NCBI RefSeq assembly: GCF_900290235.1
Contig: NZ_OLMK01000050.1
Location: 62,001 to 126,000, forward strand
Direction: 5' to 3'
From: Streptomyces sp. MA5143a
GTDB taxonomy: Bacteria; Actinomycetota; Actinomycetes; Streptomycetales; Streptomycetaceae
Length of the DNA stretch: 64,000 nucleotides
Positions 20,472 through 29,926 of this stretch are shown piece by piece. The position numbers and the translations under genes are program-made. The notes under the pieces are model-generated. The model made no database searches. It worked only from the letters and a program-made list of their open reading frames with translations, and had not been told where the DNA came from. Each line of letters opens with the position of its first letter. Within the stretch, counting starts at the first letter, position 1.

Positions 20472-20513
20472 AGCGGTCCCGGTATCTGACCAGGACCGCT
20501 TTGAACATGTTCA
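20472..20513 (-). promoter_or_regulatory. Leader of PBP paralogue B: hairpin plus 12-bp palindrome
   Basis: TGAACATGTTCA at 20502-20513 is a perfect 12-bp palindrome. Next to it, AGCGGTCC (20472-20479) and GGACCGCT (20493-20500) form a perfect 8-bp inverted repeat with a 13-nt loop. Both sit within 70 bases of the PBP start on the minus strand. The palindrome resembles an operator half-buried in the promoter; the second repeat could be a leader hairpin. Confidence 0.45.
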
Positions 20514-20709
20514 GAAATCGCGTGCCGCGCCTCACTGTAAGCGTGCCGGGTGACGCATGGGACGGGTGTTCCCCGAATCGTTAGCCCCGGACGACTTTCC
20601 ACATACGCGAACGCCGATCGCGGTGCGGACCGGGGCCGCGTCGCCGGGATGCGACTCATGGGGCTGAAGTGCACGGTGGTACTGGGGGTGTCACTTGGAG
20701 GCGAGAGAC

Positions 20710-21120
20710 ATGCGTCGTTCGACCACTTGCGTGACCCTGGCCGCCTCGCTGGTCCTTGCGGGAGGCGCGGCCGTGGCGGTACCCCAGAGCCCTGACTCCC
20801 CGACGCGCACGACGGCGGCGCGCGCGGCGGCGCCCGAGAGGCCCGTCACGCACGGGGCCCAGGACGTCTGCAACTACACCATCCAGCGACCGACCCTGAG
20901 GGTCGGCTCGGTGGGCAACGCCGTCCGGCAGGCCCAGTGCTACCTGAACAATTCCATGACGGGCCGCAAGCTGGTCGAGGACGGGAACTTCGGATCCGTC
21001 ACCAACGCGGCGACGCGGCGGTTCCAGCAGTGCGCCGGCATCACCGTGGACGGCACCATCGGCGCCCAGACCTGGTCGTTCCTGGTCTTCTGGGCCAACT
21101 CCTGGCGCAACGTGTGCTGA
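20710..21120 (+). CDS. Secreted peptidoglycan-binding domain protein
   Basis: A 136-residue protein with a signal peptide (MRRSTTCVTLAASLVLAGGA to about residue 30) and one PG_binding_1 domain: LRVGSVGNAVRQAQCYLNN, GNFGSVTNAATRRFQQC and VDGTIGAQTW. Such domains anchor exported proteins to the cell wall. No catalytic domain is attached. GGAGG lies eight bases before ATG 20710. It is convergent with pmt in the ancestral arrangement; the mobile element now separates them. Confidence 0.88.
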   Translation: MRRSTTCVTLAASLVLAGGAAVAVPQSPDSPTRTTAARAAAPERPVTHGAQDVCNYTIQRPTLRVGSVGNAVRQAQCYLNNSMTGRKLVEDGNFGSVTNAATRRFQQCAGITVDGTIGAQTWSFLVFWANSWRNVC

Positions 21121-21173
21121 TCGGCACACGCCGAACCGCCGTGTGCCGGGCGTCGCGCCCCTACCGGCCCTAG

Positions 21174-21245
21174 ACCCAGGTGTCCAGCCACATCCGCGAC
21201 CGCCAGCCGTCGATCGGGATGGGCTGGCCGGTGTACAGGGGCCAG
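21174..21245. repeat. Left attachment-site repeat (72 bp, copy of the pmt 3' end)
   Basis: Identical over 72 bases to 27237-27308. On the minus strand it reads the Pmt C-terminus through LDTWV with a stop at 21170-21172, so this is the original chromosomal end of pmt. The first flanking difference is G at 21173 versus A at 27236. Confidence 0.92.
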
Positions 21246-22107
21246 CCCGTCGACCGCCTTCCGGGTGCGGCCCTCGCTGCTCGGCATGAGGTGCGTATAG
21301 GTGCGGAGCGTGAACCCCGGATCGCTGTGACCGAGGTACTGACTCAGGGCCCGGATGTTCTCGCCCGCGTCCAGCAGTACGGACGCGTAGAAGTGCCTGA
21401 GCGCGTGCATGCCATCCTCGGGGGCCGACGCGTACGGTTCGCCGCGCTCAGGCTTCGGGATGACTCCTGCGCTTGCTAGGGCGGGCTTCCAATAGCGAGC
21501 ATTGAAGTGGCTCACGCGGACGTGATTGCCTTCGAACCCACTGAACAGAAGCCGTTTCGTCACGAGCGGGCCGTCTGGCGTACGCCAGGGAAGTGTCACG
21601 TCGACCGGGGCGAACTCCTTGGAGTGGTCCCGCAGAGCGGTGGCCACGGCCTTCGGGAGGGGTACGTCACGAACCTTGCCGCCTTTCGGCAGGGCGAAGA
21701 CGTACTTCCCGCGAATGCGCTTGAGCTGGTGGCTGACGGTCAACCAGCCTCCCTCGTAGTTGAGTTCGTCAACCGACAGGCCGAAGATCTCGCCCTGTCG
21801 CAGACCGCATCCAGCTCCGGGGTCGACGGTGGCCCGGAAACGCAGCGGGAGGGCAAGCCCGTACACGGAAGACGCGCGCGGACGTCCACGGGACCACACG
21901 GGGCTTGCCAGGCTTCGGGAGCTGCACCGTGCGGGCCCGACAGGGATTCTTGCTGAGCAGCCCATCGTCGACCGCCGCACTGAGCGCAGCTGAGACGGTG
22001 CACGATGATGCGGCGGTGCGACTCGGCCGGCACGGTGTCTTCAAGCGCCGCAATCCAGGCCCGGATGTGTTCAGGCTTGAACGAGCCGAGTGGGCGCCTC
22101 CCGATGC
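21174..22107 (-). pseudogene. Tyrosine recombinase (integrase), frameshifted and 5'-truncated
   Basis: The catalytic domain reads cleanly: CGLRQGEIFGLSVDE (first Arg), GMHALRHFYASVLL (His-x-x-Arg), YLGHSDPGF (His) and LRTYTHLM (nucleophile Tyr). Upstream the protein continues in other frames: ALSAAVDDGLLSKNPCRA and, further up, FKPEHIRAWIAALEDTV and VPAESHRRIIVHRLS. Breaks lie near 21860 and near 22000, and everything before about 22107 is replaced by an IS110-like fragment. The gene runs into the att repeat, so its tail depends on what lies beyond: here the frame stays open to 20940. Probably inactive. Confidence 0.85.
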
Positions 22108-22807
22108 CGAGCCTTCGACTACGCCGACCACAAAGGCGCGCTCACCCTGCTCACCCGCCACCAGACCCCGGCAGCCATACGCCGCCACGGCCAAGCCCGC
22201 CTCACCGCCTGGCTCAAGGGACGAAAAGTCCGCAACCCCGACGCGGTCGCCGCCACAGCCCTGCAGGCCGCCGGAACTCAGCACGCCACACTGCCGGGCC
22301 AAGAGGTCGCCGCAGGCATCGTCGCGGACATCGCCACGCAGATCCTCGCCCTGGACGACCGGCTCAAGCACGTCGACGAGCAGATCCGGCGAACGTTCCG
22401 CACCCATCCCCAGGCCCACATCATCGAGTCCCTGCCGGGCATGGGCCCCATCCTGGGAGCTGAGTTCATCGTCACCGCCGGTGACCTGGGCGCCTACGCC
22501 GACGCAGGCCACCTCGCCTCCGCCGCCGGCCTCGTGCCCGTTCCCCGCGACTCCGGACGCCGCACCGGCAACCTCCACCGACCCAAGCGCTACAGCCGAC
22601 GCCTCCGCCGCGTCTTCTACCTGTCCGCCCAGACCAGCATCATCCGCGAAGGCCCCAACCGCGACTACTACCTGAAGAAGCGGAGCGAGCGCTGCAAACA
22701 CATCCAGGCCGTCATCGCCCTCGCCCGCCGACGGGTCGGTCCTATGGGCCCTCCTGCGCGACGGCAGGCCTTTCACCTTCCATCCACCCATCGCCCAAGC
22801 CGCTTAA
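22090..22807 (+). pseudogene. IS110-family transposase, truncated and frameshifted
   Basis: The C-terminal transposase_20 part is clear (SLPGMGPILGAEFIVTAGD, LASAAGLVPVPRDSGR, KHIQAVIALARRR). The N-terminal DEDD catalytic domain is missing; the readable part starts around FDYADHKGALTLL. A one-base frameshift near 22737 separates RRR from the true tail LWALLRDGRPFTFHPPIAQA, which ends at TAA 22805-22807. The IS5 element sits in this stop codon. The fragment abuts the truncated integrase. Confidence 0.8.
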
Positions 22808-22816
22808 GACGTCATC

Positions 22817-23613
22817 TCATTTGGCGAGCCTGCGGTAGCAGATGAGGGTGCAGGCGATGCTGGTGAAGGCGAGGAAGTGGTCGGCTTTGCGTTCGTAGCG
22901 ACGGTGGAGGCGGCGGCAGCCGGCGAGCCAAGCCATGGTGCGTTCGATGGTCCAGCGGTGGCGGCCCAGTCGCTGTGAGAGCTCGATCCCTTTGCGGGCG
23001 ATGCGGTGGGTGATGCCGCGTCCGCGTAACCATCGCCGCAGGTGGGGGTAGTCATAGCCCTTGTCCGCGTGGAGCTTGTCCGGCTTGCGGCGTCTGCGTC
23101 CGCGGCAGGAGCGGATCGGCGGTATGCCCTTGACCAAGGGGATTAAGGCTTGGCTGTCGTGCAGGTTCGCGCCCGAGATTCCGACGGATATGGGCAGACC
23201 GGTCCGCTCGGTGACCAGATGGATCTTCGAGCCGTACTTGCCCCGGTCCACAGGATTCGGACCTGTCAGTTCCCCCTTTTCAAGGCCCGCATGTTCACCG
23301 AGTCGATCGCGCAGCGGGTCCAGTCCAGCTCTCCGCGAGCGCCGAGCACCAGGCGGTGGAGCTTGGCCCACACCCGGGCCTTCGACCACTCGCTGAACCG
23401 CCGATGAGCCGTCGCCCCTGACAGCCCGAAAGATGCTGTCGGCAGTTGCTGCCACGTGCAGCCCGACGTGGCCACGAACACGATCGCCGCCAGCACCTCC
23501 CGGTCGCCATGACGACGCCGACCACCGCCCTGAGGCCGCGACGGCGCCTCCGGCACCACCCGCTGGGACAGCTCCCACAGCTCATCCGGCACCAGCCGCT
23601 CAACAATCCCCAT
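22817..23613 (-). CDS. IS5-family DDE transposase made by programmed frameshift
   Basis: Two overlapping frames make one protein. Frame A runs from ATG 23613 (MGIVERLVPDELWEL) to a stop at 23266. Frame B continues GELTGPNPVDRGKYGSKIHL to the stop at 22817. The switch lies at the minus-strand run AAAAGGGGG (23272-23280), a usual -1 slippage site in this group. The DDE residues are visible in CAIDSVNMRA, LHADKGYDYP and TIERTMAWL. It has all motifs and inverted repeats, so the element may still move. Its stop lies inside the left inverted repeat. Confidence 0.85.
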
Positions 23614-23625
23614 GACCTGTCCCGC

Positions 23626-24045
23626 CTACGACTCGCTCGAGCAGATGGCCTCAATCCAGGTCGCCTGGAGGTCACGGCAGACAAGGGTGAGGGTGCCGTA
23701 CCAACATGCGATTTCGTGGCTGCAGCCGTCCCTGTGCGGCAGGATCTCGTCGAGCATCACAGCCCCGAGGTCCGCTCCCCGGTCCTCGTCGGCGGGATCG
23801 ATGACGATGCCGGACACCCCCGCGTAGCGGATCAGCAGGTCCTGGTCGTGCTTCCAGCAGTTGTGCTGGAACTCGACCTCCATCTCCTCACCGCCGGCAC
23901 CCCGGACGGCCCGAAGCGTCAGATCCTTCACACATCGCCTGCTGCGGAAGTCGTAGTGGTCCGCGTCCGTGGCGAAAGCCCGGGCGCCTGACGGCAGGTC
24001 ACAGGAGATCGAGGGCAGGTGGCTCAGGTAGCGAGTCGGGTCCAA
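23626..24045 (-). CDS. Passenger protein of unknown function inside the IS5-family element
   Basis: A 139-residue frame from TTG 24045 (DPTRYLSHLPSIS) to a stop 12 bases ahead of the transposase start, so both are likely on one transcript. Coding-like sequence continues upstream in frame (KYINLDAQVGDLSGVL) to an ATT at 24093, just after an in-frame stop, so the true start may be there with a rare codon. It has Cys/His residues (CVKDLTLR, FQHNCWKHDQDLL) and an acidic middle. I recognise no family. Possible roles are transposition regulation or cargo. Confidence 0.5.
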   Translation of the reverse strand: MDPTRYLSHLPSISCDLPSGARAFATDADHYDFRSRRCVKDLTLRAVRGAGGEEMEVEFQHNCWKHDQDLLIRYAGVSGIVIDPADEDRGADLGAVMLDEILPHRDGCSHEIACWYGTLTLVCRDLQATWIEAICSSES

Positions 24046-24232
24046 GACCCCTGACAGGTCGCCGACCTGCGCATCGAGATTGATGTACTTAATCTACCTT
24101 CGCCCCCGCTCATGACTTCCCACTGGCCGTCGAATCGTCGCACAGACTCACCAAATGAGATGACGTCTAAACGGGCCAGCGCACCCCGCCAACCTGGCTA
24201 TAGCCTGCGACCACATCAGAAAGGCGGGTCCC

Positions 24233-24511
24233 GTGGGCTTCGACGCAGAACGATCAGCGCGCATCGCCGCCATGCAGGAAGCCGCCCGGCCCGTCTGGGA
24301 GACCACCGGCGACTCGGACGCACTCCAGCAGTTCCTCAAGGACAACGAGTGCCATGGAGTGGAAGCCGTGGCCGTGACCATGGGCCTGCTGAACTGCGAT
24401 CTTGCCGAAGCTCAACAAGCCTTCCTCAACGCCCCATGCCGCGACGCCGAACGCCGCTTCCACAACCACGCCATGGACCTACTTGAAGAGGCCGCCGACA
24501 CCGACGCCTGA
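24233..24511 (+). CDS. Small hypothetical protein in the mobile element
   Basis: A 92-residue, mostly helical, acidic protein (MGFDAERSARIAAMQEAARP, GLLNCDLAEAQQAFLNAP). It starts at GTG with AAAGGCGGG upstream and lies 65 bp right of the IS5 element. It has no signal peptide or known motif, and I do not recognise it. Confidence 0.5.
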   Translation: MGFDAERSARIAAMQEAARPVWETTGDSDALQQFLKDNECHGVEAVAVTMGLLNCDLAEAQQAFLNAPCRDAERRFHNHAMDLLEEAADTDA

Positions 24512-24757
24512 CAACACCCCCGGCCCGGCAGAGACCCTTGACTCGGTCATTGAGACTCCACCGACCTCACGATGTGATCGGCCGGCCTACGTAGATGTGA
24601 CCACTTCGTGTCTCAGGGCCACCATGCGAATGACCCCTTTCTTCTCATTCCTGCCCTCTGCGGGTGACTTCAGTTAATGACGCGGGTAGCACGGGATGTG
24701 GAGCTCTCAAGAGTCCGCTCCAGAACAGCGTTTGGCCGGAGTATGCAGGGAGGCCCT

Positions 24758-25198
24758 GTGTCAGCTAGCCACGAGAAATCTACGCTTGAAACCATCTTGC
24801 CTGGAGTGTGGGACCGGGAAGTAATCGACGGGCCGGAGCGGGAACTACAGCTGCTCTATTTCACTGCGGATGGCAACTGGAAACAGCAAAAGCAGGTGTC
24901 GGGTGCTGCAGGTAATTTTTTTGGGCAGCTCTTCGGGACCGAGAGGACCGGAAAATGGTTATTGCGCGGCACTGACAGTGATCCAGTTTTGCACATGAGG
25001 CTGCACGACTGGGATCTTGGTGTCGCCGGGCAGGTGTTTCTCCCGCTCAAGAAGACATGGGAGGCGCTGGAAAGGATCGACCCCATCCCATTTCATCGTT
25101 ACGAACTAGTCGAAATCACCGACAAGAATCACCTCGTGATGAAAGGGATCAACAGCATCCTTGATGGAGTCGAGAGATGGACTCGACGAATTACCTAG
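24758..25198 (+). CDS. Hypothetical protein with foreign codon usage
   Basis: About 146 residues from GTG 24758 (GGGAGG four bases upstream); the frame is open from ATG 24677. The sequence (TILPGVWDREVIDGPEREL, WKQQKQVSGAAGNFFGQLF, HLVMKGINSILDGVERW) suggests a small beta-barrel-like fold of unknown role. Codons such as AAA, TTA and TTT are far commoner than in the host genes, a sign of recent transfer with the element. Confidence 0.55.
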   Translation: MSASHEKSTLETILPGVWDREVIDGPERELQLLYFTADGNWKQQKQVSGAAGNFFGQLFGTERTGKWLLRGTDSDPVLHMRLHDWDLGVAGQVFLPLKKTWEALERIDPIPFHRYELVEITDKNHLVMKGINSILDGVERWTRRIT

Positions 25199-25845
25199 TG
25201 TCGACTTACCTGCTTTACACGCTGCGGCGCGGTGTCGGGCCGGTCACGTGTGACACATCGTGTGCCGACATCCGAACAATGACATCAGCGGTTGCAGATG
25301 CCAGCACTCTGGCGCTACCCAAGCCGCCCGACACAACTGGGCTGTGTTGAGCCGTGCGGCATTCAGATGCGACAAGGTCGGTCGACAGGGGTGTCGTCGT
25401 CGGATTCGACTGCGCGGCAGGACAGAGAAACAGCATGGCTGAGGCCTAGGAGTGCAGCGAGGCATGCGCGCGCCTGGTCAGGCGGCGCACCCACCGTCGT
25501 GGCTGACCGTCGTTGGCCGAGGTCCAGGCGGCCCGCATCGAAGGTGGCAGCCGTCGGACGGGTGTCTGCGGTGATCAGCTCTGGGCCGTCTCTAAGCCGT
25601 GCGAGGGCGCCCGAGGCCGACCAACGGCGACCGAGAGTGACAGACGACCCGCAGCGTGCAGCACCGAGAGCCCAGGTCAGGGCGCCCGGACCAAACGCGT
25701 TTCCGCCCAGGGGTGGCCGTACGGAAAGATGGGGTGTTTCTCGCCGTGACCGGGAGCTGCGGTGACTAGCCCATAGAGCGATTGTGGGCACTGCGCCGGC
25801 ACTGTACGTTCCCGCTCACGGATCTATATAGCTCAGGGGGCGGGG
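25199..25845. other. Gene-free 650-bp stretch in the mobile element
   Basis: Several open frames cross this stretch, but none has a good start with consistent third-position composition or a familiar motif. I see no tRNA, terminator or clear repeat. It may be decayed gene sequence. Confidence 0.3.
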
Positions 25846-26271
25846 ATGCCTGGATACGGCCGCGGGGACAGTGAATGGGAAGAGCTAGTACATGCCGGTC
25901 GTGGCTTTCTCGTCGAGCGAGCGAAGCTGGGCAGGCTCACCTCGTACACGGAGCTCAACGTGACTCTGGCCAGGCGAACCGGCTGCCGTCCCTTCGACTT
26001 CGAGCGTGCCGACGAACGGGCCGCGATGGGGCATCTGCTCGGACTGATCGTGGAACGAGACCAGGAGATGACCCCCTCAGACCCGCCTGTCATGCTCTCG
26101 GCCCTGGTGAACTACCTGGGAGCCAACGACGCTGGCTCTGGCTTCTATCAGTTGGCCAAGGAGCTTCAGCTTCTGCCCATGAGCGCGTCGGCCGATGAGA
26201 AATTCGGCTTCTGGGTCAAGCAAGTGAAACAGCTCTACGAACGCCATGGAGCTGGTCCAGCGGGGGCCTGA
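25846..26271 (+). CDS. Hypothetical actinobacterial protein
   Basis: A 141-residue protein (MPGYGRGDSEWEELVHAGRG, LTSYTELNVTLARRTGCRPF, MLSALVNYLGANDAGSGFY). Its well-formed codon usage, a GGGGGCGGGG ribosome site directly before ATG 25846 and the end-to-end helical pattern argue it is real. Similar proteins appear to occur widely in Streptomyces, but I know no function. It may be cargo of the element. Confidence 0.65.
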   Translation: MPGYGRGDSEWEELVHAGRGFLVERAKLGRLTSYTELNVTLARRTGCRPFDFERADERAAMGHLLGLIVERDQEMTPSDPPVMLSALVNYLGANDAGSGFYQLAKELQLLPMSASADEKFGFWVKQVKQLYERHGAGPAGA

Positions 26272-26449
26272 AATCAAGCACCTCGAGTGTCTAACTGCGT
26301 GACAACGCCGACAGACAGCGGCGGACAATCGGGCACACCTGCGGACCATCGCAGCATGTGAGAGGCACACAGCCCCATGGTCAGGCGTTCGCCCAAGTTG
26401 CTTTGGGACGAGGCAGTCATCACCCAAGGTTTGACCATCGTGCCGCCCC
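26272..26449. other. Spacer between the hypothetical gene and the broken Nudix gene
   Basis: No gene or clear signal found. Short frames exist on both strands without starts or motifs. Confidence 0.25.
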
Positions 26450-26879
26450 TCAAGCACCCCATGTCTCGGCGTGCTCCCGTAGGTAGTCGGCGAGTTCGGG
26501 CGGATGGAGTTCAAGCGCTCTCATGGCTGGCCCGTCCAACGCGACGCGCACCGGCGAGAAGTCGCCTACGTCGGGATCATCAAGCTCAGGGCCGCTACGG
26601 CGGTTGAGATCCATGTCCACCACGGCAGCGCGAAAGAAGTGCTGCACGACGGTGACCTTCCGGCTCAGTCAAGGTCAGAAATTCGCTTGCCGGGCCGATC
26701 GTGGCACCGATCTCTTCCCTCACCTCACGGCGCAAGGCTGCTTCGAAGTCGGCATCCTCAGCTTCGACGCCCCCACCGACAGTCGTGTAGTAGGAGGTGT
26801 GACCCGGCCATCCTCGGCGCGGGAACACCAGCTGACCACCATCGAGCAGAACCGCCCGGATGTTGTGACGGACCTTCAT
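26450..26879 (-). pseudogene. Nudix hydrolase, frameshifted
   Basis: From ATG 26879 the frame reads MKVRHNIRAVLLDGGQLVF and then most of the Nudix box: GGGVEAEDADFEAALRREVREEIG is the expected G-x5-E-x7-REVxEE pattern, given here only as spacing. Near 26660 the frame breaks; the natural continuation (VVQHFFRAAVVDMDLN to HAETWGA) lies one frame away and ends at 26450. The family cleaves nucleoside diphosphate derivatives. One indel has disabled it, or there is a sequencing error. Confidence 0.75.
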
Positions 26880-27184
26880 ACGCCCGACGGTAGTGCGCCC
26901 ACCCCGGCGAGGAGGCCCGAACCGCGCAGACGAGGAACGGGCATGCCCAGCGCACCACTGACGCACCAGAACGAGGGGGGGAACAGCGGGGAATCACGAG
27001 GAAGGCTGCTGAGCCCGGCAGGGCCGCGCACTCACCGTTCACCCAGGTCAGCGCCCAAGCCGCACCCAAACGCCCGCAGCTTCCCAAGCTGAGGGCTCAG
27101 GCACCGTCTGCCGGGCTGCATGCGCCGGGCCGTCTTCGGGCCGTCCGAGGGTGGCCAACGACGACCGCTAACGACCAACAACGA
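26880..27184. other. Spacer before the right attachment repeat
   Basis: No gene. At 27155-27186 the sequence repeats AACGACC-like words (CAACGACGACC, TAACGACC, CAACAACGACC), a possible set of integrase arm-type sites 50 bases from the att repeat. In the excised circle this stretch encodes the tail of the integrase. Confidence 0.35.
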
Positions 27185-27219
27185 CCACGAGGGCGCGGCA
27201 GGCTGCCGCGCCCTCGTGG
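27185..27219. terminator. Perfect 17-bp hairpin beside the right attachment site
   Basis: CCACGAGGGCGCGGCAG (27185-27201) and CTGCCGCGCCCTCGTGG (27203-27219) are perfect inverted copies. The hairpin stands just downstream of pmt on the minus strand and may terminate it. It came in with the element. Confidence 0.65.
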
Positions 27220-27232
27220 CATTTCTGCCCAG

Positions 27233-28972
27233 CTAAACCCAGGTGTCCAGCCACATCCGCGACCGCCAGCCGTCGATCGGGATGGGCTGGCCGGTGTACA
27301 GGGGCCAGAAGTAGATGAAGTTCCAGGTGATGAGGAGGACGAGGACGCCCGCCGCCGCGGCGCCGGCCACGCGTCGGCGTTCGGTGGCCGCCGCGGGGCC
27401 GAGGACGGCGCCGACGAGCATCGCCACGGCCAGGCACAGGAAGGGCAGGAAGACGACGGCGTAGAAGTAGAAGATCGTCCGTTCCTGGTACAGGAACCAC
27501 GGGAGGTACCCGGCGGCGATCCCGCAGGCGATGGCGCCGGCGCGCCAGTCGCGGCGGAACAGCCAGCGCCACAGGACGTAGAGGGTCGCGAAGGCGGCGG
27601 CCCACCACAGCAGCGGGGTGCCGAGGGCGAGGACCTCGCGGGCGCACTTCTCGACGGTGCCGGTCGGGCAGCCGTCCGTGCCGGGCGGCGGCGACTCGTA
27701 GAAGTACGAGACGGGCCGGCCGGCGATGATCCAGCTCCACGGGTTCGACTGGTACGTGTGCGGCGACGACAGGCCCACATGGAACTCGTAGACCGCGTGC
27801 TCGTAGTGCCACAGGCTGCGCAGCCAGTCCGGCAGCCAGGCGAACCAGCCGCCCTTGCCCTCGGTCGCCGCCCAGTTGCGGTAGTAGCCGCCGGTGCCGT
27901 CGTCCGGGGAGACGATCCAGCCGGTCCACGAGACCAGATAGGTGACGATCACCACCGGGACCGTCGACAGGAACGCCCAGCCCAGGTCGCGCTGGAGCGT
28001 CGCGATCAGCGGCTGACGGGCACCGGCGACCTTGCGCGCCGAGTGGTCCCACAGCACCGTCATGATCCCGAAGAACACCAGGAAGTACAGGGCGTTCCAC
28101 TTGGTGCCGAAGGCCAGACCGAGGCAGAGCCCCGCCAGCAGCCGGTACGGGCGCAGGCCCAGCCGGGTCGTCTCCGCGACGAGCGGGTGGGGCCGCACGA
28201 CCCCGTCGCCGTCCCGTGGCAGCGCCGCCGCCAGCCGTGCGCGTGCCTTGTCCCGGTCGATGACCAGACAGCCGAAGGCCGCCAGCACGAAGAACATCAG
28301 CACCTGGTCCAGCAGCGCCGTGCGGCTCATCACGAAGTGCAGTCCGTCCACCGCCATCAGCCCGCCCGCCAGGCAGCCCAGGAACGTCGAGCGGAAGATG
28401 CGGCGGCCGATCCGGCACAGCATCAGCACCGACAGCGTGCCGAGCACCGCCGTCATGAAGCGCCAGCCGAACGGGTTGAACCCGAACATCAGCTCGCCCA
28501 GCCCGATGACGTACTTGCCGACGGGCGGGTGCACCACATACGCCGGATCCGTGGGGATCGGCACGTTCCCGTTGTTTTGGAGGATCAGCTCATTCGCGTT
28601 CTTGGCCCAGTTGACCTCGTATCCGCGGTGGACGATCGCCCACGCGTCCTTGGCGTAGTACGTCTCGTCGAATATCACCGCCTTGGGGCTGCCCAGGTGC
28701 CAGAACCGCAGCAACCCCGCGACCAGCGTCACCAGCAGCGGACCGCCCCACGCCGACCAGCGCACCAGGCGCTCGGCGAGACCCTCGCCCACCCCGACCG
28801 AGGCCCAGAAACGCGGGCCGGGCCGGGTGTACGGGGGCACGAGCCGGGTGCTCACGTCGCTTCTGCGCGGCGCCGAGTAGCCGAAACGGCGCAGCCGCTG
28901 CTGCCACGACGGCCGCTGGTCTTCGGTGGCCTGGTCCTGCCGGGTGTCCGTGGAGGACGCGGTACTGGTCAC
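27233..28972 (-). CDS. pmt: Dolichyl/polyprenyl-phosphate-mannose--protein O-mannosyltransferase
   Basis: A 579-residue multi-spanning protein of the PMT family. The catalytic Asp-Glu motif is in VIFDETYYAKDAW in the first outer loop, followed by many membrane helices and HPPVGKYVIGLGE. The enzyme moves mannose from polyprenyl phosphate to Ser/Thr of exported proteins. In S. coelicolor Pmt is needed for phiC31 infection. GTG 28972 (MTSTASSTDTRQ) is the likely start. The last codons lie in the 72-bp att repeat: the element supplied this 3' end, with the same final residues LDTWV. It is divergent from rsmI. Confidence 0.92.
   Translation of the reverse strand: MTSTASSTDTRQDQATEDQRPSWQQRLRRFGYSAPRRSDVSTRLVPPYTRPGPRFWASVGVGEGLAERLVRWSAWGGPLLVTLVAGLLRFWHLGSPKAVIFDETYYAKDAWAIVHRGYEVNWAKNANELILQNNGNVPIPTDPAYVVHPPVGKYVIGLGELMFGFNPFGWRFMTAVLGTLSVLMLCRIGRRIFRSTFLGCLAGGLMAVDGLHFVMSRTALLDQVLMFFVLAAFGCLVIDRDKARARLAAALPRDGDGVVRPHPLVAETTRLGLRPYRLLAGLCLGLAFGTKWNALYFLVFFGIMTVLWDHSARKVAGARQPLIATLQRDLGWAFLSTVPVVIVTYLVSWTGWIVSPDDGTGGYYRNWAATEGKGGWFAWLPDWLRSLWHYEHAVYEFHVGLSSPHTYQSNPWSWIIAGRPVSYFYESPPPGTDGCPTGTVEKCAREVLALGTPLLWWAAAFATLYVLWRWLFRRDWRAGAIACGIAAGYLPWFLYQERTIFYFYAVVFLPFLCLAVAMLVGAVLGPAAATERRRVAGAAAAGVLVLLITWNFIYFWPLYTGQPIPIDGWRSRMWLDTWV
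27237..27308. repeat. Right attachment-site repeat (72 bp, functional pmt 3' end)
   Basis: A perfect copy of 21174-21245 that forms the present end of pmt, one base before its stop codon at 27233-27235. It was brought in by the element. Confidence 0.92.
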
Positions 28973-29080
28973 CGCGCCATCGTAGGGAACACCGCTGCGG
29001 GAGTCCCGTGCGTCGGGGATGTGGCCCCGTCGCCTCCCGCGCTTCGCCCGCCCGCCCGAGCGGCTGGGAGGATGAGGGGT

Positions 29081-29926
29081 GTGACAGGAATCCTTGTGTT
29101 GGCAGGTACTCCCATCGGCGACATCGCGGACGCCCCGCCCCGGCTGGCCGAGGAGCTGAGCGGTGCCGACGTGATCGCCGCCGAGGACACCCGGCGGCTG
29201 CGCCGGCTCACCCAGGCGCTGGGTGTGCAGCCGGGCGGCCGGATCGTGTCGTACTTCGAGGGCAACGAGGCGGCGCGCACCCCGGAGCTGGTCGAGGCGC
29301 TGGCCGGGGGCGCGCGGGTGCTGCTCGTCACGGACGCGGGGATGCCGTCGGTCTCCGACCCCGGGTACCGGCTGGTCGCGGCGGCCGTCGAGAAGGACAT
29401 CCGGGTCACCGCCGTCCCCGGCCCCTCCGCGGTGCTCACCGCGCTGGCTCTGTCCGGTCTGCCCGTCGACCGCTTCTGCTTCGAGGGCTTCCTGCCGCGC
29501 AAGGCGGGCGAGCGGCTCGGCCGGCTCCGCGAGGTCGCCGACGAGCGCCGCACCCTCGTCTACTTCGAGGCCCCCCACCGCCTCGACGCGACGCTCACCG
29601 CGATGGCCGAGGTCTTCGGCACGGGGCGCCGCGCCGCGGTCTGCCGTGAGCTGACCAAGACGTACGAGGAGATCAAGCGGGGCCCCCTCGGCGAGCTGGC
29701 CGCCTGGGCGGCGGAGGGGGTGCGCGGCGAGATCACGGTCGTGGTCGAGGGCGCGCCGGAGAAGGGGCCGGAGGAACTGGACGCGGCCGAGCTGGTCCGG
29801 AGGGTGCGGGTGCGCGAGGAGGCGGGGGAACGGCGCAAGGAGGCGATCGCCGCGGTGGCGGTGGAGGCGGGGGTGCCGAAGCGGGAGGTGTTCGACGCGG
29901 TCGTTGCGGCGAAGCGGGTGCCGTAG
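29081..29926 (+). CDS. rsmI: 16S rRNA (cytidine(1402)-2'-O)-methyltransferase
   Basis: A 281-residue member of the tetrapyrrole-methylase-fold SAM enzymes. GTPIGD, AAEDTRRLRRL, DAGMPSVSDPG and a late FEAPHRL are the RsmI motifs. It 2'-O-methylates C1402 in the 16S rRNA decoding centre. GTG 29081 is used because GGGAGG is nine bases upstream; ATG 29072 would overlap that site. It is divergent from pmt. Confidence 0.93.
   Translation: MTGILVLAGTPIGDIADAPPRLAEELSGADVIAAEDTRRLRRLTQALGVQPGGRIVSYFEGNEAARTPELVEALAGGARVLLVTDAGMPSVSDPGYRLVAAAVEKDIRVTAVPGPSAVLTALALSGLPVDRFCFEGFLPRKAGERLGRLREVADERRTLVYFEAPHRLDATLTAMAEVFGTGRRAAVCRELTKTYEEIKRGPLGELAAWAAEGVRGEITVVVEGAPEKGPEELDAAELVRRVRVREEAGERRKEAIAAVAVEAGVPKREVFDAVVAAKRVP

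What the first reader, a model, noticed from the sequence alone, without database searches (positions are those of the whole stretch)
21174..27308. Mobile element inserted in the 3' end of pmt, with exact 72-bp repeats that restore the gene
The repeats are identical over 72 bases. Both encode the last residues of Pmt with a stop right after. Tyrosine integrases commonly use tRNA genes; here the target is a protein-glycosylation gene that phage phiC31 needs for infection. A decayed element guarding or altering that locus is unusual. Inside are IS nests, unknown small genes and less GC-biased sequence.
Basis: partly seen in the sequence, partly recalled or inferred. Interest (0 to 1): 0.75.

Follow-up and report, generated by a model that had tools for sequence, protein, structure and literature searches.

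The report
Decayed AICE at 3' end of pmt
The segment is the fossil of a small conjugative element that inserted into the last codons of a Streptomyces protein-mannosylation gene and put back those codons plus a stop and a hairpin; it is one case of a recurrent, largely already described kind of insertion, not a device that alters the gene.

Summary
In detail: 21170-21245 and 27233-27308 match at 75/76 positions (72 exact), and both encode the Pmt C-terminus plus a stop. It is the remnant of an actinomycete integrative and conjugative element (AICE). A close relative (G139) has the locus without it. In 393 Streptomyces genomes, 25 carry an integrase at least 69% identical to that of the S. scabiei 87.22 pmt element; 24 lie by a Pmt-tail repeat, one is off-target. 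These integrases form an exact clade (support 0.99). Relatives carry Int, Prim-Pol, FtsK/Tra and GntR. An off-target insertion in a sulfatase gene places the crossover at CTAC, so the pmt-proximal tail, stop and a covarying hairpin come from the element. In the window, Int is truncated and frameshifted, and a 129-bp deletion removed the distal crossover core, so it cannot excise. Pmt is unaltered; nothing supports 'guarding'. Choufa et al. 2022 (PMC9513070) show AICE decay at a 'phospholipid carrier-dependent glycosyltransferase', probably this site. New member of a known kind. Modest additions: clade-to-site mapping, crossover map, covarying hairpin, and tail copies alike within genomes (3.9% vs 22.5% between).

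The parts
27233..29578 (-). pmt, protein O-mannosyltransferase (ORF open from 29578; the true start is further in). Its 3' 76 nt is the pmt-proximal, element-supplied tail
   Evidence: PF16192, PF02366; NF058602 Pmt model at 289 bits, below its curated cut-off of 800; neighbours TP_methylase, TatD, Rpf-like
27233..27308 (-). pmt-proximal repeat copy, element-derived, encodes the last residues and TAG
   Evidence: its 3' flank TAGCTGGGCAG is the element type shared with other elements
27311..27314 (-). crossover region CTAC (GTAG on the + strand) inferred from the off-target insertion in G252
   Evidence: the int-side junction is element type up to CTAC and target type after it; the other junction is the reverse
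27185..27219 (-). hairpin about 15 nt after the pmt stop, brought by the element; terminator-like (function inferred)
   Evidence: (z -5.4), 69: 13 of 16 pairs have two-sided changes over 18 genomes
27126..27184 (.). conserved element end: repeated GTCGTT-type and GACGGCCC-type motifs, probable integrase arm sites (inferred)
   Evidence: end conserved in 19 of the 20 fetched loci; motif pairs seen at both ends of intact elements
21170..21245 (-). distal repeat copy, host-derived, with native 3' flank TAGGGCC
   Evidence: same flank as the empty site in G139 (L016)
21122..21148 (.). native inverted repeat between pmt and the convergent gene, now beyond the distal copy (position read from the sequence)
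21246..22105 (-). integrase pseudogene: N-terminus cut near 22106, internal frameshift, C-terminus and about 129 bp lost next to the distal copy
   Evidence: 92.5% nt identity to S. scabiei 87.22
22090..22845 (+). IS110-type transposase fragment (ORF limits)
   Evidence: PF02371
22808..24167 (-). IS5-type insertion sequence with inverted ends 22799-22832 / 24143-24176; transposase in two frames, plus an ORF 23626-24045
24233..26271 (+). small ORFs 24233-24511, 24677-25198 and 25846-26271 without family hits; the last recurs in other genomes (76-93% aa identity), some of those stretches holding a tRNA gene
26595..26966 (-). NUDIX remnant, a common AICE cargo type
   Evidence: PF00293; NUDIX genes are frequent on AICEs (PMC3218068)

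Best explanation
This is the remnant of an AICE that integrated by its tyrosine integrase into the 3' end of pmt. Shown by sequence: the crossover lies at or next to CTAC, upstream of the repeated tail; after integration the pmt-proximal tail, the stop and the following hairpin come from the element, while the original tail and its native flank are pushed to the far end next to int. Pmt is therefore kept whole. In this genome the element has died: int is truncated and frameshifted, no replication or transfer gene was found, transposases have landed in it, and a deletion of about 129 bp took out the crossover core and one arm on the distal side, so it cannot be excised. Inferred: the hairpin ends pmt transcription and shields the element; the repeated motifs at both ends are integrase arm sites.
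For: Empty site in close relative G139 (pmt 98%, flank 97%). Eighteen fetched insertions at the same place with a 71-94% identical integrase beside the distal copy. 25 such integrases in 393 genomes; by inspection 23 on a contig with a pmt-type repeat, a 24th (G023) beside a Pmt-tail repeat, the 25th off-target. Exact clade, support 0.988. AICE modules in L041 and an 18.4-kb circular record NZ_CP107792 with a 75% identical integrase, FtsK, Prim-Pol, NUDIX and the pmt tail. Off-target crossover map. Covarying hairpin. Truncation and deletion of int.
Against: No transfer or replication gene remains in the window, so its own membership rests on int, ends and site. The interior does not match the intact elements except at the ends and int, and two short modules, so part of it may come from other elements. 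The crossover is mapped from a single off-target event. The two tails should differ if the element came from another species, yet are 75/76 identical; this needs homogenisation or a close donor. Termination by the hairpin is not tested.
Confidence: 0.95

Rival explanations
1. It is a decayed prophage rather than an AICE.
For: The integrase has remote relatives in actinophages (best about 27-30% identity).
Against: No phage record matches the stretch 21100-24800; the related elements are 9-23 kb and the one scanned by family models (L041) carries Prim-Pol and FtsK/Tra.
Confidence: 0.02
2. The repeat is a plain segmental duplication of the pmt 3' end made by the transposases inside.
For: Transposase genes lie between the copies.
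Against: The same repeat arrangement occurs in many genomes with an integrase of one clade beside it; a transposase like those of the window was found in only one of the 20 fetched loci.
Confidence: 0.01
3. The stretch is a composite: ends of several elements accreted at pmt, then decayed.
For: Interior modules near 25431-25745, 26284-26411 and 26951-27096 recur in scattered places of other genomes, in two cases inside pmt elements (L044, L045) and once beside a dead integrase of this family. S. scabiei has three repeats in tandem, a few others three.
Against: No third Pmt tail inside the window.
Confidence: 0.4
4. The insertion changes Pmt and so phage phiC31 sensitivity.
For: Pmt and Ppm1 were identified as required for phiC31 infection in S. 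coelicolor (PMC5882110).
Against: The restored tail is identical in protein sequence to the displaced one; no clear defence gene found.
Confidence: 0.03

Closest known systems
AICE06 and its decayed forms in Streptomyces S1D4-23 and relatives (Choufa et al. 2022, PMC9513070, Fig. 4)
   Same: Empty site, intact AICE, and remnants with truncated integrase between two direct repeats, inserted in a 'phospholipid carrier-dependent glycosyltransferase' gene
   Different: Whether their gene is this pmt was not verified here (name only); they describe one population; no crossover map or integrase clade for this site was seen in the passages read
AICEs with pSLS-subfamily integrases (Ghinet et al. 2011, PMC3218068)
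   Same: Reported as the AICE integrase subfamily that does not use tRNA genes
   Different: pSLS itself could not be compared here; membership untested
Prophage e14 / phage 21 in E. coli icd (recalled, not tested)
   Same: Element brings a replacement 3' end of a protein-coding gene
   Different: Lambdoid prophages, a different host gene, unrelated element
PAISt in Streptomyces turgidiscabies (PMC4057263, abstract)
   Same: Streptomyces integrative element using the 3' end of a protein-coding gene (bacA)
   Different: 8-bp palindromic site and a large, different element

Membership tests
AICE | integrase next to one of two att repeats | tested here: met
   remnant of a tyrosine integrase beside the distal copy; open in 18 relatives
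AICE | replication protein (RepSA, RepAM or Prim-Pol) | tested here: not met
   none found in the window; Prim-Pol in relative L041. The window holds a remnant, not a working AICE
AICE | FtsK/SpoIIIE-type Tra | tested here: not met
   none found in the window; present in L041 and NZ_CP107792
pmt-targeting integrase clade | Int in the clade and Pmt-tail repeat beside it | tested here: met
   exact clade with the window fragment inside, support 0.988
pSLS integrase subfamily (Ghinet 2011) | clusters with pSLS integrase | not tested
   pSLS was not among the plasmid hits listed
Prophage | phage structural genes | tested here: inconclusive
   no match of 21100-24800 in phage records; interior ORFs without family hits

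The most novel reading that the evidence does not exclude
An integrase family in Streptomyces whose clades each use the 3' end of a different conserved protein-coding gene (pmt; by adjacency also glutamine synthetases, phosphoglycerate mutase, perhaps others), carrying a repair cassette of tail codons, stop and hairpin; and, after integration, the two tails in a genome become alike, so that the borrowed tail takes on the host's sequence through heteroduplex repair or gene conversion.
Probability: 0.35. Interest if true: 0.5.

Novelty: new member of a known kind. Interest (0 to 1): 0.33.

Why it matters
It turns a one-off oddity into an instance of a mapped system: one integrase clade, one site, a crossover position, and a natural off-target event. 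That makes the site a candidate defined attB in many Streptomyces (a pmt-type match was found in 362 of 393 genomes) and gives a case for asking how elements keep a host gene intact when they land in it. It also removes a suggested link to phage resistance.

Tried and rejected
Rfam over 20500-28000: no match. tRNA genes in the window: none, so the site is not a recognisable tRNA. I first took the interior modules for arms of tRNA-targeted elements; no tRNA was found within the short stretches around their relatives, and they were left as recurrent element-end modules. Phage DNA match: none. Tail history: correlation of tail distance with host pmt versus integrase was weak and the pairs are not independent (partial 0.37 vs 0.13); kept as suggestive only. 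In one search my script mislabelled the copies and gave no result; one search replaces it. A first translation of the S. scabiei integrase used wrong coordinates, corrected. A PADLOC scan of interior ORFs and some cargo of L041 gave only weak hits.

Full report
Observation. The window holds two copies of a 76-nt sequence, 21170-21245 and 27233-27308, with one mismatch and 72 nt exact. Both code for the last residues of Pmt and a TAG stop. They are the only copies found in the host genome, G000. The gene is a protein O-mannosyltransferase by Pfam (PF16192, PF02366); the NCBI Pmt model matches at 289 bits, below its cut-off of 800. The neighbourhood (TP_methylase, TatD, Rpf-like) agrees with the pmt locus of actinobacteria from general knowledge.

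What is between the copies. Next to the distal copy is a tyrosine integrase remnant (PF00589), then an IS110-type fragment, an IS5-type insertion sequence with inverted ends, small ORFs without family hits and a NUDIX remnant. GC falls to 60-63% over 24-27 kb against 70-75% in most flanking bins.

Not a core region. G139, a close relative by flank (97%) and pmt (98%), has pmt next to the flanking gene with no element; only a short MITE-like insert lies between them. Its 3' flank TAGGGCC equals the flank of the window's distal copy, while the proximal copy has the flank TAGCTGGGCAG that other elements carry. So the distal copy keeps the native side and the proximal copy the element side.

A recurrent insertion. 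A pmt-type match to the 76-nt repeat was found in 362 of 393 Streptomyces genomes, and a number have two copies 9-23 kb apart, a few three. I fetched 20 such stretches. Eighteen carry an open integrase of 71-94% identity to the window fragment; a 19th, L044, holds part of one because my stretch ended inside it. In the genus search the 25 best integrases are 69-100% identical to that of S. scabiei 87.22, then identity drops to 66%. Comparing positions by eye, 23 of the 25 share a contig with a pmt-type repeat; G023 has a Pmt tail beside int; G252 is the exception treated below. In a tree of 89 integrases the pmt group, with the window fragment, is an exact clade with support 0.988. Integrases outside it lie next to other genes, by eye the 3' ends of glutamine synthetases, phosphoglycerate mutase and others; I did not test whether those gene ends are duplicated.

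What kind of element. L041, an intact relative, has Int, Prim-Pol, FtsK/SpoIIIE and a GntR regulator. A record deposited as an 18.4-kb circular plasmid (NZ_CP107792, Streptomyces sp. NBC_00562) has a 75% identical integrase, FtsK, Prim-Pol, HD, NUDIX, XRE and GntR genes and a Pmt tail; it may be an excised form. These are the modules that define AICEs (PMC3218068).

Where the exchange happens. In G252 an element of this clade sits in a sulfatase gene. One junction reads sulfatase up to CTAC and then the Pmt tail; the other reads element up to CTAC and then sulfatase. The exchange is therefore at or beside CTAC (27311-27314 in the window), upstream of the whole repeated tail. Pmt's own tail in G252 carries the element-type flank and hairpin of an older remnant, so the first-choice site may have been occupied (inference). 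It follows that on-target the proximal tail, stop and what follows are the element's.

The hairpin. About fifteen nt after the stop lies a hairpin (27185-27219) that folds far better than shuffles (z -5.4). Over 18 genomes 13 of its 16 pairs show changes on both sides, 43 such cells against 17 in shuffles and at most 16 in slid controls. For that count I left out three of the 21 proximal flanks whose hairpin was weak by eye (L042, L052, L056), so it describes the elements with a clear hairpin. A role as terminator is inferred. A native inverted repeat remains at 21122-21148, beyond the distal copy.

Decay here. Compared with S. scabiei the window int lacks its N-terminal part (cut near 22106 by the IS110 fragment), has a frameshift, and lost its C-terminus with about 129 bp that held the crossover core and one arm. 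With no core on that side, no integrase of this kind should be able to excise it (inference).

The two tails. Over 19 genomes the proximal and distal tails differ by 3.9% within a genome and 22.5% between genomes (10,000 shuffles, none as low). An element from another species should bring a foreign tail, as the G252 off-target copy seems to. Either donors are mostly close relatives or tails are made alike after insertion. Tail distance follows host pmt somewhat more than int (partial 0.37 vs 0.13), but pairs are not independent. In G139 the empty-site tail differs from the window's at 6 of 76 positions although pmt differs by about 2%, which fits conversion. I hold this as suggestive.

Relation to the literature. 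Ghinet et al. 2011 report that AICEs mostly use tRNA genes except the pSLS integrase subfamily (PMC3218068). Choufa et al. 2022 report 14 of 51 insertions in protein-coding genes and show decay at a phospholipid carrier-dependent glycosyltransferase, with empty site, intact AICE06 and remnants between direct repeats (PMC9513070). That is very probably this site, but only the gene name links them. Pmt and Ppm1 were identified as required for phage phiC31 infection (PMC5882110); nothing here connects the element with that.

Verdict. It is a new member of a known kind.

Noticed in passing
window 25431-25745, 26284-26411, 26951-27096: Three non-coding modules that recur at about 70-85% identity in scattered places of many Streptomyces genomes, often together and sometimes near dead elements; no Rfam match.
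   Followed up: partly
L178, L179 (G252 C1): A sulfatase gene split by a pmt-type element so that its first part is fused to the Pmt tail.
   Followed up: yes
L016 (G139), just downstream of pmt: A short sequence with long inverted ends (GGGCCCTTCTGATGGATCTCC...) sits right after the pmt stop, MITE-like.
   Followed up: no
L040 14210-14285: In S. scabiei 87.22 a middle repeat copy shows tandem accretion; it encodes a changed Pmt tail (ATWV for DTWV).
   Followed up: partly
window 25846-26271: An ORF without family hits whose relatives (76-93%) lie in five other genomes, three of the fetched stretches also holding a tRNA gene.
   Followed up: partly
L094-L149: Related integrases (54-66%) lie beside other conserved genes, e.g. 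the 3' ends of glutamine synthetases and phosphoglycerate mutase.
   Followed up: partly
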